Shown here in pieces: positions 14,212 through 21,705 of a DNA stretch of 35,916 nt; the stretch's first letter is position 1, and each line of letters starts with the position of its first letter. The position numbers were made by a program, and so were the translations under genes. The notes under the pieces are model-generated. The model was not told the origin of the DNA. It was given only the letters and a program-made list of their open reading frames with translations, and made no database searches. Origin of the DNA: a bacterium (lineage in GTDB: Bacteria; Patescibacteriota; Minisyncoccia; UBA6257; UBA9933); the NCBI GenBank assembly GCA_030693235.1, contig JAUYBE010000016.1, positions 1-35,916 of the forward strand. Direction: 5' to 3'.

Positions 14212-15611
14212 GAATACTAACTAAAGAAATCGTTAATAAAGAAAACGAAGAGGTGGAGTTGATGGGCTGGGTAGCTACGCGCCGCGATCACGGCAAGCTT
14301 ATTTTTATTGATTTGCGGGACAGAAGCGGAATCAGCCAAGTGGTTTTTTTGCCGAAGCCGGAAGAACTGCGCCAATTGGCTGATAAATTAAGATCGGAAT
14401 GGGTGGTAAAAATAATCGGCAAAGTCAGCCGCCGTCCCAAAGGCATGGAAAATCCGGAAATAGAAACCGGTAATTTTGAAATTCAGGCTGAAAAACTGGA
14501 AATTTTAAATCCGGCGGAAGCCCTGCCGATTAATATTGAAACCGACGGCTATGAAATCGGCGAAGATGTCCGGATGAAATACCGCTATCTGGATTTGCGC
14601 CGCCAGCGTTTGCAGAAAAATTTCCGAACGCGGGCTAAAACCGTCAAATTTATCAGAGACTTTTTAATTGAAAAGGATTTTGTTGAAATTGAAACTCCGA
14701 TTTTAAGCAAATCAACGCCCGAAGGCGCCCGCGATTATTTGGTAGCGTCGCGGCTTCAGCCGGGAAAATTTTACGCGCTTCCCCAATCGCCTCAGCAGTA
14801 CAAACAGCTTTTAATGGTGGCCGGCTTTGAAAGATATTTCCAAATAGCCAAGTGTTTCAGAGACGAAGATACCCGAGGCGACCGCCAGCCAGAATTCACC
14901 CAATTGGATTTAGAAATGAGCTTTATTGAAAGAGAAGATGTTTTAAATCTGATGGAAGAAATGACCGTATCTTTGGTTAAAACCGTTTTCCCAAAAAAAA
15001 CAATCAGCCAAATTCCTTTTCCTGTTTTAACCCATAAAGAAGCAATTGAAAATTACGGTTCGGACAAACCGGATTTAAGAAAAGACAAGAATAATCCGGA
15101 CGAACTGGCTTTCGCGTGGATTATTGATTTCCCTGTTTTCGAAAAAGACGAAAAAACCGGAAAGATTACTTATTCCCATAATCCCTTCACTGCTCCAAAA
15201 CCGGAATTTAACGATGACTTGATGAACGGCCGGAATCTGGAAAAACTGGTTTCACAGCAATACGATCTGGCTTTAAACGGATTTGAAACAGCCGGCGGAG
15301 GAATCCGAATCAATAAGCCGGAATTATTGGAAAAAGTTTTTGAAACGATCGGCTATTCCAAAGAACATATCAGGAAAGATTTCGGCCACATCCTTGAAGC
15401 TTTTAAATTGGGCGCGCCGCCGCACGGTGGAATCGCTTTTGGCCTTGACCGATTGCTCGCGATTTTACAGAATGAACCTAATATCCGCGAAGTAATCGCC
15501 TTTTCAAAAACCGGCGACGGAAGGGATTTAATGATGGACGCGCCGAGCGAGGTTGACGAAAAGCAATTAAAAGAATTAAAATTAAAGACATATGGAACTA
15601 AAAGAATTTAA
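14208..15611 (+). CDS. aspS: Aspartyl-tRNA synthetase, bacterial type lacking the GAD insertion
   Basis: GWVATRRDHGKLIFIDLRDRSG, FVEIETPILSKSTPEGARDYLV, RCFRDEDTRGDRQPEFTQLDLEMSF motif 2, HGGIAFGLDRLLAIL motif 3. Confidence 0.95.
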   Translation: MRILTKEIVNKENEEVELMGWVATRRDHGKLIFIDLRDRSGISQVVFLPKPEELRQLADKLRSEWVVKIIGKVSRRPKGMENPEIETGNFEIQAEKLEILNPAEALPINIETDGYEIGEDVRMKYRYLDLRRQRLQKNFRTRAKTVKFIRDFLIEKDFVEIETPILSKSTPEGARDYLVASRLQPGKFYALPQSPQQYKQLLMVAGFERYFQIAKCFRDEDTRGDRQPEFTQLDLEMSFIEREDVLNLMEEMTVSLVKTVFPKKTISQIPFPVLTHKEAIENYGSDKPDLRKDKNNPDELAFAWIIDFPVFEKDEKTGKITYSHNPFTAPKPEFNDDLMNGRNLEKLVSQQYDLALNGFETAGGGIRINKPELLEKVFETIGYSKEHIRKDFGHILEAFKLGAPPHGGIAFGLDRLLAILQNEPNIREVIAFSKTGDGRDLMMDAPSEVDEKQLKELKLKTYGTKRI

Positions 15612-16203
15612 ACAAGAAAAAACTTTGGTCATCATCAAGCCGGACGGCATTCAACGCGGACTTATCGGCGAAATTATCAAAAGATTCGAAAATGTCGGCT
15701 TGAAATTAATTGCCGTTAAAATGACAACCTTGGTCCCGGATTTTATCGAGAAACATTACACCATTAATCCTGAATGGCGGAAAGTCACCGGAGAAAAAAC
15801 CATCAAAAACTACAAGGATAAAGGATTGATTCCACCCCACGATGATCCTTATAAAATCACCGAAATTATTTTGGGCAATATGAAAAAATATATGTCAGCC
15901 GGTCCGGTGATAGCGATGATTTTAGAAGGAGCCCACGCGATAAAAATCGTCCGAAAACTGGTCGGCGGTACCGAACCCTTAACCTCCGACGTCGGAACCA
16001 TCCGCGGCGATTACGTTTTGGATTCTTACCAAATGTCCGATACTGACGGCCGGTCGATCAGGAATTTAATTCACGCTTCCGGCTCGGTTGAAGACGCCGA
16101 AAAAGAAATTAGTCTTTGGTTTTCTCCGGAAGAAATCGTCAATTACCGATTGGTTCAAGAAAAAATTCTCTACGACGTGAATCTGGACGGAATTTTAGAA
16201 TAA
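15592..16203 (+). CDS. ndk: Nucleoside-diphosphate kinase with internal insertion
   Basis: KTLVIIKPDGIQRGLIGEIIKRFE; GTIRGDYV; active-site region NLIHASGSVEDAEKEI; ~200 aa versus ~140-150 usual. Confidence 0.88.
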   Translation: MELKEFKQEKTLVIIKPDGIQRGLIGEIIKRFENVGLKLIAVKMTTLVPDFIEKHYTINPEWRKVTGEKTIKNYKDKGLIPPHDDPYKITEIILGNMKKYMSAGPVIAMILEGAHAIKIVRKLVGGTEPLTSDVGTIRGDYVLDSYQMSDTDGRSIRNLIHASGSVEDAEKEISLWFSPEEIVNYRLVQEKILYDVNLDGILE

Positions 16204-16207
16204 TCGG

Positions 16208-16237
16208 TTGAATTTCCGCTATCTGGTATGTTATAAT
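16208..16237 (+). promoter_or_regulatory. Promoter of the free-standing ncRNA
   Basis: TTGAAT (16208-16213) - 18 nt - TATAAT (16232-16237) with extended TGT. Confidence 0.75.
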
Positions 16238-16243
16238 ATCAAT

Positions 16244-16366
16244 GGCTCCGCTGAAAAAGATTCTCGGATCAAATAAATTTTTAAGGGAGGGCGAATTACC
16301 ACGACGGTAACGTCGGGGTTGAGCCCACCCACCTGGATTTAGCCGGGAAATCTTCTAAGCGGGGCC
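16244..16366 (+). ncRNA. Structured non-coding RNA of unassigned family
   Basis: Closing stem GGCTCCGCT/AGCGGGGCC, AAGATT/AATCTT, GGGaGGGC/GCCCaCCC, CGACG-GTAA-CGTCG tetraloop; own promoter and terminator. Confidence 0.75.
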
Positions 16367-16369
16367 AAC

Positions 16370-16402
16370 AAAAATCCCCCGACGTAACGTCGGGGGATTT
16401 TT
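16370..16402 (+). terminator. Strong intrinsic terminator of the ncRNA
   Basis: AAAAATCCCCCGACG-taa-CGTCGGGGGATTTTT, 15-bp stem with T tract. Confidence 0.93.
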
Positions 16403-16408
16403 GTTTCT

Positions 16409-16482
16409 TGGAGCGGGTAAGGGGAATCGAACCCCTTTCATCAGCTTGGAAAGCTGAGGTAATACCAGTATACGATACCCGC
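16409..16482 (-). tRNA. tRNA-Gly (anticodon TCC), CCA encoded
   Basis: Reverse complement GCGGGTA...TCAGCTTTCCAAGCTGA...GGGGTTCGATTCCCCTTACCCGCTCCA. Confidence 0.96.
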
Positions 16483-18071: not shown

Positions 18072-18768
18072 ATTTTTTAATAGTTCTTAGAACCTTTTTA
18101 TAATCTTTCTCCTTGCAAATAATTTTCCCGTTTAACATTACATTGGTAATTTTCGGCCTTAAAAATCGCAAAATAACTCCGGAATGAGTAATCAACAAGA
18201 CTGAAACGCCCTTGGCGACCAGCTCTTTTTTTATTATTTTCGCCACCTTCTCCAATCTTTTAATGTCTAATCCCGAATCAATCTCGTCAAAAATCGCTAA
18301 TTTCGGACCTAAAGACAAAATTTGTAAAAGTTCGGATATTTTTTTCTCCCCGCCCGAAAATTCCAAATTCAACTCTCTTTCCAAAAATCGGGGTTTTAAA
18401 TCCAATTTTTCGCTTTCAAATTTTACTTTTGAAATTTTCTCCAATAATTGAGAGAATTTTACTCCTTTTATGGCCGGTGGCGATTGCCAAGTTAAAGCGA
18501 TTCCCAGCTTTACTCTTTTTTCTGGAGAAATTTTGGTAATTTCCTTTTGCCCGAAAAAAATTCCTCCTTTAATTATTTTATACTTTGGATTTCCCGAAAT
18601 TACCTGCGCCAAAGTGCTCTTTCCGCTGGCATTCGGGCCTAAAAGCGCTTGAACTTCGCCGGGTCTTATTTGGAAATCAATGCCATTCAGTATTTTTTTC
18701 CCGTTTCCCGCCGCGTATAAGTTTTTTAATGTCAGTAATATTTTATCTGACATTGCAATATTCGACAT
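18028..18768 (-). CDS. sufC: Fe-S cluster assembly ATPase SufC
   Basis: ABC ATPase GPNASGKSTLAQVISGNPKYKI, LEFSGGEKKISELLQIL, AIFDEIDSGLDI typical of SufC. Confidence 0.92.
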   Translation of the reverse strand: MSNIAMSDKILLTLKNLYAAGNGKKILNGIDFQIRPGEVQALLGPNASGKSTLAQVISGNPKYKIIKGGIFFGQKEITKISPEKRVKLGIALTWQSPPAIKGVKFSQLLEKISKVKFESEKLDLKPRFLERELNLEFSGGEKKISELLQILSLGPKLAIFDEIDSGLDIKRLEKVAKIIKKELVAKGVSVLLITHSGVILRFLRPKITNVMLNGKIICKEKDYKKVLRTIKKYGYEKCKKCKLLAD

Positions 18769-19432
18769 AAGCCATTAATTCCAGCGCCAATTTTTTCAAC
18801 TCTTCGTCGGAATATGAAACTTCTTTCATAAGACTTGAATCGTTCAGTTTTGTGGGAATGAATTTTTGTAAAAAATAATTTTTCGCGCCTTTTATCGTTT
18901 TCGCGATTTTTCTCAAATCGTCTTCGCTTGTGAGGCATTTTACAATAGTAGTCCGAAACTCATAATCTATGCCTGAATTCATTATTAATTCTATGCTTTT
19001 TTTTAATTTTTCAACCGGCGCCTGCCAACCCATAATCTTTGAATAATCTTCAAGCGGGGTCTTAATGTCCATAGCGAGATAATCAGCCAATTTTTCGTTG
19101 ATGATTTTTTCAAGAACTTCCGGCCGGCTTCCATTACTGTCCAATTTCACTAAAAACCCCATATTTTTAATTTTTTTCATCACCTCAATCAGATCCGGAT
19201 GTTGAGTTGGCTCTCCGCCGGTAATACTTACGGCATCAAGTTTATCGCGACGGCTCTTAAGAAAATCATAAATTTGAGAAAGCGGGATTTCCGGAGCGTA
19301 TTTTTCCGGAATGACAAGTTCCGGATTATGACAATATCGACAACGGAAGTTACAACCGCGAGTAAAAATAACAGCGCAGGTTTTCTCCGGATAATCAATC
19401 AAAGAAAATTTTTGGATTCCTCCGATAATCAT
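18743..19432 (-). CDS. nrdG: Anaerobic RNR-activating radical SAM protein
   Basis: FTRGCNFRCRYCHNPELV (CxxxCxxC), SITGGEPTQHPDL; directly downstream of nrdD. Confidence 0.92.
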   Translation of the reverse strand: MIIGGIQKFSLIDYPEKTCAVIFTRGCNFRCRYCHNPELVIPEKYAPEIPLSQIYDFLKSRRDKLDAVSITGGEPTQHPDLIEVMKKIKNMGFLVKLDSNGSRPEVLEKIINEKLADYLAMDIKTPLEDYSKIMGWQAPVEKLKKSIELIMNSGIDYEFRTTIVKCLTSEDDLRKIAKTIKGAKNYFLQKFIPTKLNDSSLMKEVSYSDEELKKLALELMAYVEYCNVR

Positions 19433-19434
19433 AT

Positions 19435-21525
19435 TTATTCCTCATTTTTATAAGTTTTCCGCACATTAAATTCGGCCATCTTACCGTCATTCCACTGATT
19501 TATGGGACGTAAATAACCGACAATTCTTGAATAAATTTCGCAGGTACTGTGGCATTCGCCGCAAACAGGAACTTCTCCGGAGATATATCCATGATTCGGA
19601 CAAACACTAAATGTCGGGGTTAAAGTAAAATAAGGCAGTCGGTAACTCTCGCATATTTTTTTAACCAAGTTTTTAACAGACGTTCCGTCTTTAATTCTTT
19701 CTCCGAGAAAAATGTGCGCAACGGTGCCGCCGGTATATTTTGTCTGTAAATCGTCTTGTAATTCCAGCGCCTCAAAAATGTCGTCGGTAAAATTAACCGG
19801 CAAGTGCGTTGAATTGGTGTAAAAAGGACTTTTCGCTTCTTTGCCTTTGCCATTGGCAAAAATAGCGTTTTCATATTTTTTTTGGTCCAATAAAGCCAAA
19901 CGGAATGAAGCTCCTTCCGCGGGTGTCGCTTCCAGATTATAATTATTTCCGGTTTCTGCTTGAAAAGAGGTAAGCGTTTCTCTCATAAAATCAAGGGTGT
20001 CTTTCGCAAATTTTTGCCCCCGGGGCGAAGCGATATTTTTTCCATATAAATTTTGCGCCGCTTCGTTCATTCCTACAAGACCGATAGTGGAAAAATGATT
20101 TTTCCAATAACTGCCATAGTGGCTTTTTATATTTCTCAAATAATATTTGGTGTATGGGTATAAATTGCCTTCTGTAAATTTTTCCAACACTTTTCTTTTT
20201 ATCTCCAAGCTATTCTTGGCCAGAATCATTAATTCTTTAAGTTTTTTAAAAAAATCTTTTTTATTTTTTGCGGTATGGCCGATACGAGGCAAATTAATAG
20301 TTACCACCCCGACCGAGCCTGTCAACGGGTTTGCGCCAAATAAACCGCCGCCGCGTTTTTCCAGCTGCCTATTGTCAATTCTTAGACGGCAACACATTGA
20401 ACGAGCGTCTTCCGGTTTCATCTCGGAATTGATAAAATTCGAAAAATAAGGCAAGCCGTATTTTCCGGTCACTTCCCATAACAGTTTACTGGTATCACTA
20501 TTCCAATCGAAATCTTTTGTAATATTGCACGTCGGAATCGGGAATGTAAAAACGCGGCCGCTTGCGTCTCCTTCCGACATTACCTCTAAAAACGCTTTGT
20601 TAAACATATCCATTTCTTTTTGAAATTCTTGATATGTTTCACGCTGCGGCTTACCGCCAATAATAACCGCCTGTTTTGCGTAATGATTGGGCGCTGTCAA
20701 ATCCAACGTAATATTTGTGAACGGCGTCTGGAAACCTACGCGCGTGGGCACATTAATATTAAAAAGAAATTCTTGAAGCGCTTGCTTTACTCCCTTATAT
20801 GTTAAGTTGTCGTATCTGATAAAAGGAGAAAGCAGAGTGTCAAAATTGCTGAATGCCTGCGCGCCAGCCGCCTCGCCCTGAAGCGTGTAGAAAAAATTAA
20901 CAACTTGTCCGAGGGCCGACCTGAAATGCTTTGACGGTTTGCTTGATATTTTCCCTTCAACCCCGGTAAAACCCTTCATTAATAAATCAAAAAGATCCCA
21001 TCCGACACAATAAACTGAAAGAATATTTAAATCATGAAGATGGAAATCCCCGCTCATATGAGCGATTCTGATATTTTCGGGATAAATTTTATTCAACCAG
21101 TAATTTTTACTTATCTCGCTGGAAATATAATTATTCAATCCCTGCAGAGAATAAGACATATTGCTGTTTTCTTTTACCTGCCAGTCTGATTTGTTCAAAT
21201 ATTGTTCTACTAAACTATTATTGGCGGAGCTTGTAATATCTCTAATTAGCTTGTGTTGTTCTCGATATAAAATATAAGCCTTGGCTGTTTTCTTATATTT
21301 TGAACGCAATAAAACATCTTCCACAATATCTTGAATTTGCTCGACCAGAGGAATCGCGTCTTTAATGATTTTTTCCGCGCAAATTAAAACTTTCTTTGTC
21401 AGTTTATTTGCCGCTTTAGAATCAAATTCTCCTGTCGCTTTTCCGGCTTTAGCAATCGCAATAGATATTCTTTTCTCATCGAAAGAAACAATTTGCTCGT
21501 TGCGTTTTTTGATTTGTGAGAACAT
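19435..21525 (-). CDS. nrdD: Anaerobic (class III) ribonucleoside-triphosphate reductase
   Basis: N-terminal ATP-cone, SVYCVGWDLFDLLMKGF, cysteine cluster CPNHGYISGEVPVCGECHSTCE, C-terminal RIVGYLRPINQWNDGK glycyl-radical region. Confidence 0.95.
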   Translation of the reverse strand: MFSQIKKRNEQIVSFDEKRISIAIAKAGKATGEFDSKAANKLTKKVLICAEKIIKDAIPLVEQIQDIVEDVLLRSKYKKTAKAYILYREQHKLIRDITSSANNSLVEQYLNKSDWQVKENSNMSYSLQGLNNYISSEISKNYWLNKIYPENIRIAHMSGDFHLHDLNILSVYCVGWDLFDLLMKGFTGVEGKISSKPSKHFRSALGQVVNFFYTLQGEAAGAQAFSNFDTLLSPFIRYDNLTYKGVKQALQEFLFNINVPTRVGFQTPFTNITLDLTAPNHYAKQAVIIGGKPQRETYQEFQKEMDMFNKAFLEVMSEGDASGRVFTFPIPTCNITKDFDWNSDTSKLLWEVTGKYGLPYFSNFINSEMKPEDARSMCCRLRIDNRQLEKRGGGLFGANPLTGSVGVVTINLPRIGHTAKNKKDFFKKLKELMILAKNSLEIKRKVLEKFTEGNLYPYTKYYLRNIKSHYGSYWKNHFSTIGLVGMNEAAQNLYGKNIASPRGQKFAKDTLDFMRETLTSFQAETGNNYNLEATPAEGASFRLALLDQKKYENAIFANGKGKEAKSPFYTNSTHLPVNFTDDIFEALELQDDLQTKYTGGTVAHIFLGERIKDGTSVKNLVKKICESYRLPYFTLTPTFSVCPNHGYISGEVPVCGECHSTCEIYSRIVGYLRPINQWNDGKMAEFNVRKTYKNEE

Positions 21526-21566: not shown

Positions 21567-21705
21567 GCGCCAAGAATCAATTCAATCTTGAGGCTTGGCG
21601 CGAGCCGAAAGCGGACCTATTAGAGATAATTGCACGGGATCGGACTTTAACCGTTACGCGATAGCGAGGGAATTACACCCTGCTTCACCGTACAAACCGC
21701 TATTA
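21567..21705 (-). promoter_or_regulatory. Cobalamin (class II/AdoCbl-variant-like) riboswitch with downstream P13/terminator-like stem
   Basis: P1 AGCGG/CCGCT (21697-21701/21610-21614), GTACGG/CCGTGC, L5 hairpin AGGGTGTAATTCCCT, CGGTTAAAGTCCG; downstream GCGCCAAG...CTTGGCGC with loop GAATT complementary to L5 AATTC. Confidence 0.72.

What the first reader, a model, noticed from the sequence alone, without database searches (positions are those of the whole stretch)
16244..16402. Free-standing structured RNA with own promoter and a terminator that repeats its internal hairpin
TTGAAT-N18-TGTTATAAT places a start 6-7 nt downstream at the first base of a 9-bp closing stem (GGCTCCGCT/AGCGGGGCC, one G-U). 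Inside are AAGATT/AATCTT, GGGaGGGC/GCCCaCCC and a CGACG-GTAA-CGTCG hairpin. A 15-bp terminator follows. TAACGTCGGGG occurs both in the apical hairpin (16308-16318) and in the terminator's right arm (16385-16395). The terminator's left arm (CCCCGACG) could therefore pair with either copy, giving an alternative fold that would disrupt termination. I could not match it to 5S, SRP, 6S, tmRNA or RNase P motifs.
Basis: partly seen in the sequence, partly recalled or inferred. Interest (0 to 1): 0.78.

Follow-up and report, generated by a model that had tools for sequence, protein, structure and literature searches.

The report
Divergent 6S RNA of Patescibacteria
The stretch encodes a compact, divergent form of 6S RNA, a well-known small RNA that mimics a promoter and sequesters RNA polymerase; it occurs widely in the ultra-small Patescibacteria (CPR) bacteria, where the standard Rfam model almost always misses it.

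Summary
A free-standing RNA gene lies at 16244-16366, with its own sigma70-type promoter and a strong terminator (16370-16402), in a 0.61-Mb Patescibacteria (Parcubacteria-type) genome. The interpretation needs replacing: this is 6S RNA. Rfam's 6S model aligns end to end at only 22.7 bits (cut-off 46.4), so routine annotation misses it. A model built from relatives finds it, usually once per genome, in 48 of 61 related genomes and in 134 of 380 sampled across the phylum; Rfam passes its cut-off in 4 of 380. All 30 places where Rfam's 6S model scores in that sample are also hit, in register, by my model. The helices covary very strongly. The -10 box is conserved in 44 of 49 relatives. Three strands of the central bubble coexist as alternative pairings (CUCGG or CCUGG with CCGGG), as in the pRNA-driven release switch of E. 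coli 6S RNA. RNA polymerase binding and pRNA synthesis are inferred from homology, not shown.

The parts
16208..16237 (+). sigma70-type promoter: -35 TTGAAT (16208-16213), 18-nt spacer, -10 TATAAT (16232-16237)
   Evidence: Sequence. 44 of 49 homologues have a 5/6 or 6/6 TATAAT match within 3-14 nt upstream of the aligned RNA start, against 11 expected and at most 20 in 200 shuffles.
16244..16366 (+). 6S RNA core (closing stem to closing stem, 123 nt)
   Evidence: RF00013 full-length sub-threshold match 16240-16371; R1/R2/R3 matches 16242-16368; covariation
16244..16252 (+). closing stem 5' strand, pairs with 16358-16366
   Evidence: Fold; all 10 aligned pairs of this helix show two-sided changes in relatives
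16257..16267 (+). downstream helix 5' strand: AAGATT (pairs 16349-16354) and CTCGG (pairs 16343-16347)
   Evidence: Covariation: 88% and 99% of cells paired
16256..16269 (+). predicted pRNA template (pRNA 5'-AUCCGAGAAUCUUU starting opposite U16269); inferred, not shown
   Evidence: Position by alignment to RF00013/E. coli 6S; CGGAUCAA conserved in relatives; prediction
16268..16284 (+). 5' strand of the central bubble (AUCAAAUAAAUUUUUAA)
   Evidence: Largely unpaired in the consensus; AUCAA 69-94% conserved in 49 homologues
16285..16330 (+). upstream (terminal) arm: GGG-A-GGGC / GCCC-A-CCC helix enclosing the apical hairpin 16298-16319
   Evidence: Helices 4-6 (96.6, 97.4 and 94.3% of cells paired)
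16331..16347 (+). 3' strand of the central bubble ACCUGG(AUUUAG)CCGGG, able to form a 5-bp hairpin 16332-16336/16343-16347 when the downstream helix is opened
   Evidence: Conserved CACCCACCUGG...CCGGGA; hairpin 87.8% of cells paired; forms in the window RNA when the pRNA template is masked
16358..16366 (+). closing stem 3' strand
16370..16402 (.). intrinsic terminator, 15 bp, A-run/T-run on both sides; lies between convergent 6S (+) and tRNA-Gly (-), probably bidirectional
16409..16482 (-). tRNA-Gly(UCC), convergent neighbour
15592..16203 (+). ndk (nucleoside diphosphate kinase), upstream neighbour

Best explanation
This is the 6S RNA gene (ssrS) of a Patescibacterium. From its own sigma70-type promoter the cell makes a compact, rod-like RNA whose central bubble resembles a melted promoter (fold and promoter shown by sequence and covariation). 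By homology, the RNA occupies the sigma70 RNA polymerase holoenzyme and holds it in reserve. When nucleotides become plentiful, the polymerase copies a short product RNA from the 5' side of the bubble (predicted start opposite U16269, 5'-AUCCGAGAAUC...). That opens the downstream helix CUCGG/CCGGG. The freed CCGGG strand can then fold back on CCUGG in the 3' bubble, which helps release the polymerase. The three mutually exclusive strands are shown in the sequence and in relatives. Polymerase binding, pRNA synthesis and release are inferred from the family.
For: Rfam 6S aligns end to end to 16240-16371 with the GGGAG...CACCCACCUGGA motif. It is the only Rfam family that recurs in register among relatives: 25.5, 25.0, 24.7, 23.9 and 20.7 bits. 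Model R2, built only from family- and order-level relatives, hits 134/380 Patescibacteria genomes. Every one of the 30 places where RF00013 scores in that sample, four above its cut-off with up to 60.2 bits, is also a hit of R2 in the same register. The broader model R3 picks out the 6S RNA of two non-Patescibacteria, Oscillospiraceae L204 and Faecalibacterium L207, as its top hits in register (19.8 and 19.3 bits). Covariation: 94.5% of cells paired, 33 of 35 pairs with two-sided changes, score 0.78 against 0.25 in shuffles and at most 0.16 when slid. Promoter conserved. A 424-aa ORF with a sigma70 region-2 domain is present in the genome. Strand switch. The known mechanism, including the E. 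coli-type 3'-bubble hairpin formed with the 3' strand of the downstream helix, is from PMC8876501.
Against: The window's own RF00013 score is well below the curated cut-off. R2 and R3 do not recognise E. coli 6S itself, and R3 missed the four non-CPR 6S loci in whole-genome mode. [quoted passage not shown] The 3'-bubble hairpin alone has weaker covariation support than the long-range helix. When free, only 14 of 49 homologues fold with the long-range helix in their single best structure and 22 already form the hairpin. No expression or binding data.
Confidence: 0.93

Rival explanations
1. An Ms1-like RNA: derived from, or resembling, 6S, but binding the RNA polymerase core without sigma and acting as a reserve of core enzyme rather than as a promoter mimic that makes pRNA.
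For: Ms1 was also first taken for 6S from its predicted structure and then shown to bind core enzyme (PMC9130861), so structure alone does not settle binding.
Against: Ms1 is about 300 nt with extra terminal hairpins; this RNA has a 123-nt core and no extra hairpins. Rfam 6S matches full length here and in relatives. The template side of the bubble is conserved.
Confidence: 0.05
2. An unrelated new small RNA family that happens to share a rod-like fold with 6S.
For: Sub-threshold Rfam score in the window; no direct detection of E. coli 6S by the new models.
Against: 30 of 30 Rfam-6S places in Patescibacteria are hits of the new model in register; two Firmicutes 6S loci are its top hits; shared sequence motifs GGGAG and CACCCACCUGG in the same structural places.
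Confidence: 0.02
3. One reading: a regulatory RNA whose terminator is controlled by pairing of its left arm with the apical hairpin.
For: A 12-nt identity between apical hairpin and terminator arm.
Against: Identity not found in any of 48 other homologues; alternative fold -51.8 against -81.7 kcal/mol, and -39.9 against -57.6 before the right arm is transcribed; the next feature downstream is a convergent tRNA, so there is no adjacent same-strand gene for read-through to control.
Confidence: 0.02

Closest known systems
6S RNA / SsrS (Rfam RF00013)
   Same: Closing stem, downstream helix, central bubble with conserved GGGAG on the 5' side and CACCCACCUGG on the 3' side, terminal arm, own sigma70-type promoter, usually one copy per genome, alternative hairpin in the 3' bubble
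   Different: Core of 123 nt instead of ~180; the part of the closing stem with the GUUCG / CGGCA motif of canonical 6S is missing (gaps against matches); scores below the Rfam cut-off; terminal arm short
Escherichia coli 6S RNA
   Same: 3' strand of the downstream helix can refold into a hairpin with the 3' bubble strand (E. coli type, PMC8876501)
   Different: 5-bp instead of 9-bp hairpin; no similarity detected directly by the new models
Bacillus subtilis 6S-1 RNA
   Same: General architecture; minimal 6S-1 variants consisting of the bubble and two short arms still complete the cycle in vitro (PMC8876501), which makes a compact natural 6S plausible
   Different: B. subtilis uses a bubble-collapse helix rather than the E. 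coli-type hairpin; I did not test for a collapse helix here
Ms1 RNA of Actinobacteria
   Same: 6S-like rod with central bubble
   Different: About 300 nt, extra terminal hairpins, binds core enzyme (PMC9130861)

Membership tests
6S RNA (RF00013) | Score above the Rfam gathering cut-off (46.4 bits) | tested here: not met
   22.7 bits in the window. Four homologous Patescibacteria loci do meet it, up to 60.2 bits, and are hit in register by the model built from the window's relatives. The cut-off is an annotation threshold, not a biological feature.
6S RNA (RF00013) | Homology to accepted 6S RNAs over the whole length | tested here: met
   Full-length 1-187 alignments; 30/30 co-location of the two models; R3 finds Firmicutes 6S
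6S RNA (RF00013) | Rod-like fold: closing stem, central bubble, terminal arm, supported by covariation | tested here: met
6S RNA (RF00013) | Conserved bubble sequences (GGGAG / CACCCACCUGG) in place | tested here: met
6S RNA (RF00013) | Independent transcription from a housekeeping promoter | tested here: met
   Consensus -10 box conserved in 44/49 homologues; the transcript itself was not observed
6S RNA (RF00013) | Alternative structure that can form after pRNA synthesis (3'-bubble hairpin or bubble-collapse helix) | tested here: met
   (hairpin type); masking the template gives the hairpin in 31/49 homologues, including the window
6S RNA (RF00013) | Binding to sigma70 RNA polymerase holoenzyme | not testable with these tools
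   A sigma70 region-2 protein is encoded; binding needs experiment
6S RNA (RF00013) | Acts as a template for pRNA | not testable with these tools
   Template and start predicted only
Ms1 RNA | About 300 nt with extra hairpins at both ends | tested here: not met
   123-nt core bounded by promoter and terminator

The most novel reading that the evidence does not exclude
Patescibacteria carry a distinct compact 6S subclass, inherited from the base of the radiation and largely invisible to Rfam, which has lost the canonical GUUCG/CGGCA part of the closing stem while keeping an E. coli-type refolding switch. It would be one of very few global regulators left in ~0.6-Mb host-dependent genomes.
Probability: 0.5. 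Interest if true: 0.6.

Novelty: new member of a known kind. Interest (0 to 1): 0.45.

Why it matters
6S RNA is the main RNA that controls bacterial RNA polymerase directly. In the open papers searched I found no description of it in the candidate phyla radiation, and Rfam passes its threshold in only 4 of 380 sampled Patescibacteria genomes. A model from this locus and its relatives raises that to at least 174 of 380. If right, these extremely reduced bacteria kept a growth-phase polymerase regulator. The covariance model could be used to annotate it, and pRNA reads in existing metatranscriptomes could test it.

Tried and rejected
Rfam at gathering threshold gave only tRNAs and a cobalamin riboswitch in the window. 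Other weak Rfam matches (His_leader, PyrR, rimP and so on) mostly sit on the terminator hairpin and do not recur in relatives. The terminator/apical alternative fold was rejected by conservation and energy. A DNA pattern over genome contigs gave 28 stretches: 20 of them carry a match to R2 at the pattern; the eight without one (Kitasatospora, Halopiger, Nocardioides, Gracilimonas, Anaerolineales, Oscillospiraceae, Faecalibacterium and Acidobacteria records) are chance. Blastn hits at the terminator palindrome in relatives are unrelated terminators. Blastn hit L020 is not this RNA: the surrounding sequence looks like a tRNA gene interrupted by an intron, which I did not test. Searching the Chloroflexota as a group was not possible. 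MAFFT misaligned the closing stem (A1), so a model was built and sequences realigned to it (A4, A5).

Full report
What is there. Window 16244-16402 lies between ndk (15592-16203) and a convergent tRNA-Gly (16409-16482, minus strand). No ORF of 90 aa or more covers it. The genome has 610,819 bases. Named records that carry the RNA include Parcubacteria, Wolfebacteria, Liptonbacteria and Colwellbacteria, so the window is Patescibacteria.

Identity. No Rfam family reaches its gathering score. A permissive scan of 331 bases gave RF00013 (6S) over its whole length, 16240-16371, at 22.7 bits, E 0.0088 across all families. The alignment places GGGAG and CACCCACCUGGA, the two sides of the 6S central bubble, on the same letters in the window. 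Blastn against 60 relatives found diverged copies. From 11 sequences (the window and ten relatives) I built model R1, which finds the RNA in 48 of 61 genomes of the family and order, almost always once. RF00013 finds 2 of the 61, both under its cut-off. Scanning 40 of these loci against all of Rfam, RF00013 is the only family that recurs in register: L070 25.5, L093 25.0, L092 24.7, L086 23.9, L073 20.7 bits.

The decisive test is phylum-wide. R2 (49 sequences, all found by R1 in the family and order) hits 134 of 380 Patescibacteria genomes. RF00013 hits 30 of the same 380, four above its cut-off. All 30 places are R2 hits in the same register: 26 of them already in the whole-genome search, and the other four when the fetched loci were searched (L168, L180, L190, L195). 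None of these 30 sequences was used to build R2. So accepted 6S RNAs of other Patescibacteria and the window's RNA belong to one family. R3 (97 sequences) reaches 174 of 380, a lower bound because only 9 candidates per genome are scored. R3 gives no hit at E 1 or less in 8 non-Patescibacteria genomes, four of which have a Rfam 6S. Scored without filters, R3's best hits are the 6S RNAs of two Firmicutes, L204 and L207 (E about 0.01). E. coli 6S itself is not recognised.

Structure. On 49 homologues (A4), 94.5% of cells pair, 33 of 35 pairs change on both sides, and the covariation score is 0.78 against 0.25 for shuffles and at most 0.16 for slid structures. The alignment was fitted to this structure, which favours it, but the margin is large and two-sided changes occur in all six helices. 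The most conserved bubble stretches are AUCAA (5' side) and ACCUGG (3' side).

Switch. The strand CCGGG (16343-16347) pairs either with CUCGG (16263-16267, 99% of cells) or with CCUGG (16332-16336, 88%). In several relatives all three strands remain compatible after changes, for example CUCGA/CCUGA/UCGGG and CCUGG/CCUGG/CCAGG. Masking the 14 nt that a pRNA would cover makes the window RNA, and 31 of 49 homologues, form the 3'-bubble hairpin, against 22 unmasked. This is the E. coli type of refolding described in PMC8876501: opening of the downstream helix lets its 3' strand form a hairpin with the 3' bubble. That it happens here is inference.

Promoter and terminator. 44 of 49 homologues have a -10 box at the expected place, against 11 expected by chance and 20 at most. 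23 of 49 have a clear terminator within 70 nt. The window's terminator is symmetric and lies between convergent genes, so it probably serves both.

The shared 12-mer is peculiar to this genome and the alternative pairing is about 30 kcal/mol worse, or about 18 worse before the right arm exists. It is best seen as a coincidence or local duplication.

What differs from textbook 6S. The core is 123 nt; PMC9130861 cites about 160 nt for one of the shortest known. The alignments show that the missing part is in the closing stem, where canonical 6S has GUUCG/CGGCA, and in the terminal arm. Truncated 6S-1 with only the bubble and short arms still works in vitro (PMC8876501), so the compact form can plausibly function. 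The full transcript with terminator would be about 159 nt, so the claim of shortness applies to the core only.

Novelty. In the held open-access library no paper holds '6S RNA' with 'Candidate Phyla Radiation' or 'Saccharibacteria', and one holds it with 'Patescibacteria', incidentally. Subscription papers, including the main survey of 6S RNA (Wehner et al. 2014, known here only through citations), could not be read, so earlier mention cannot be excluded. The four Rfam-positive genomes show that 6S in the phylum is not wholly unknown to databases. I therefore file this as a new member of a known kind.

Noticed in passing
window 21627-21705 (-): AdoCbl-II (cobalamin) riboswitch above its Rfam cut-off (45.6 bits), directly upstream of nrdD, a class III anaerobic ribonucleotide reductase (19435-21525, -), and nrdG (18743-19432, -): a B12 switch on a B12-independent reductase in a Patescibacterium.
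   Followed up: partly
L066 151-277 and 493-618 (-): Genome G012 carries two tandem copies of the 6S RNA about 215 nt apart, reminiscent of the paired 6S RNAs of Bacillus.
   Followed up: no
window 16307-16318 and 16384-16395: 12-nt identity between the apical hairpin of the 6S RNA and the terminator arm, not seen in 48 homologues; possibly a local duplication or conversion event.
   Followed up: yes
L005, L019 (genomes G019, G013): These two related 6S genes have lost the otherwise near-invariant CACCCACCUGG (they read CACCAUAUUGAG and CACCAAUUUUGAG) while keeping stems: a natural variant of the 3' bubble.
   Followed up: no
L020 (genome G040): A tRNA-like sequence that appears interrupted by an intron-like insert containing GACGGTAACGTCGGGGTGAATCCC...AAGATACAGTC, probably a group I intron in a tRNA gene (sequence); a chance blastn match to the apical hairpin.
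   Followed up: no
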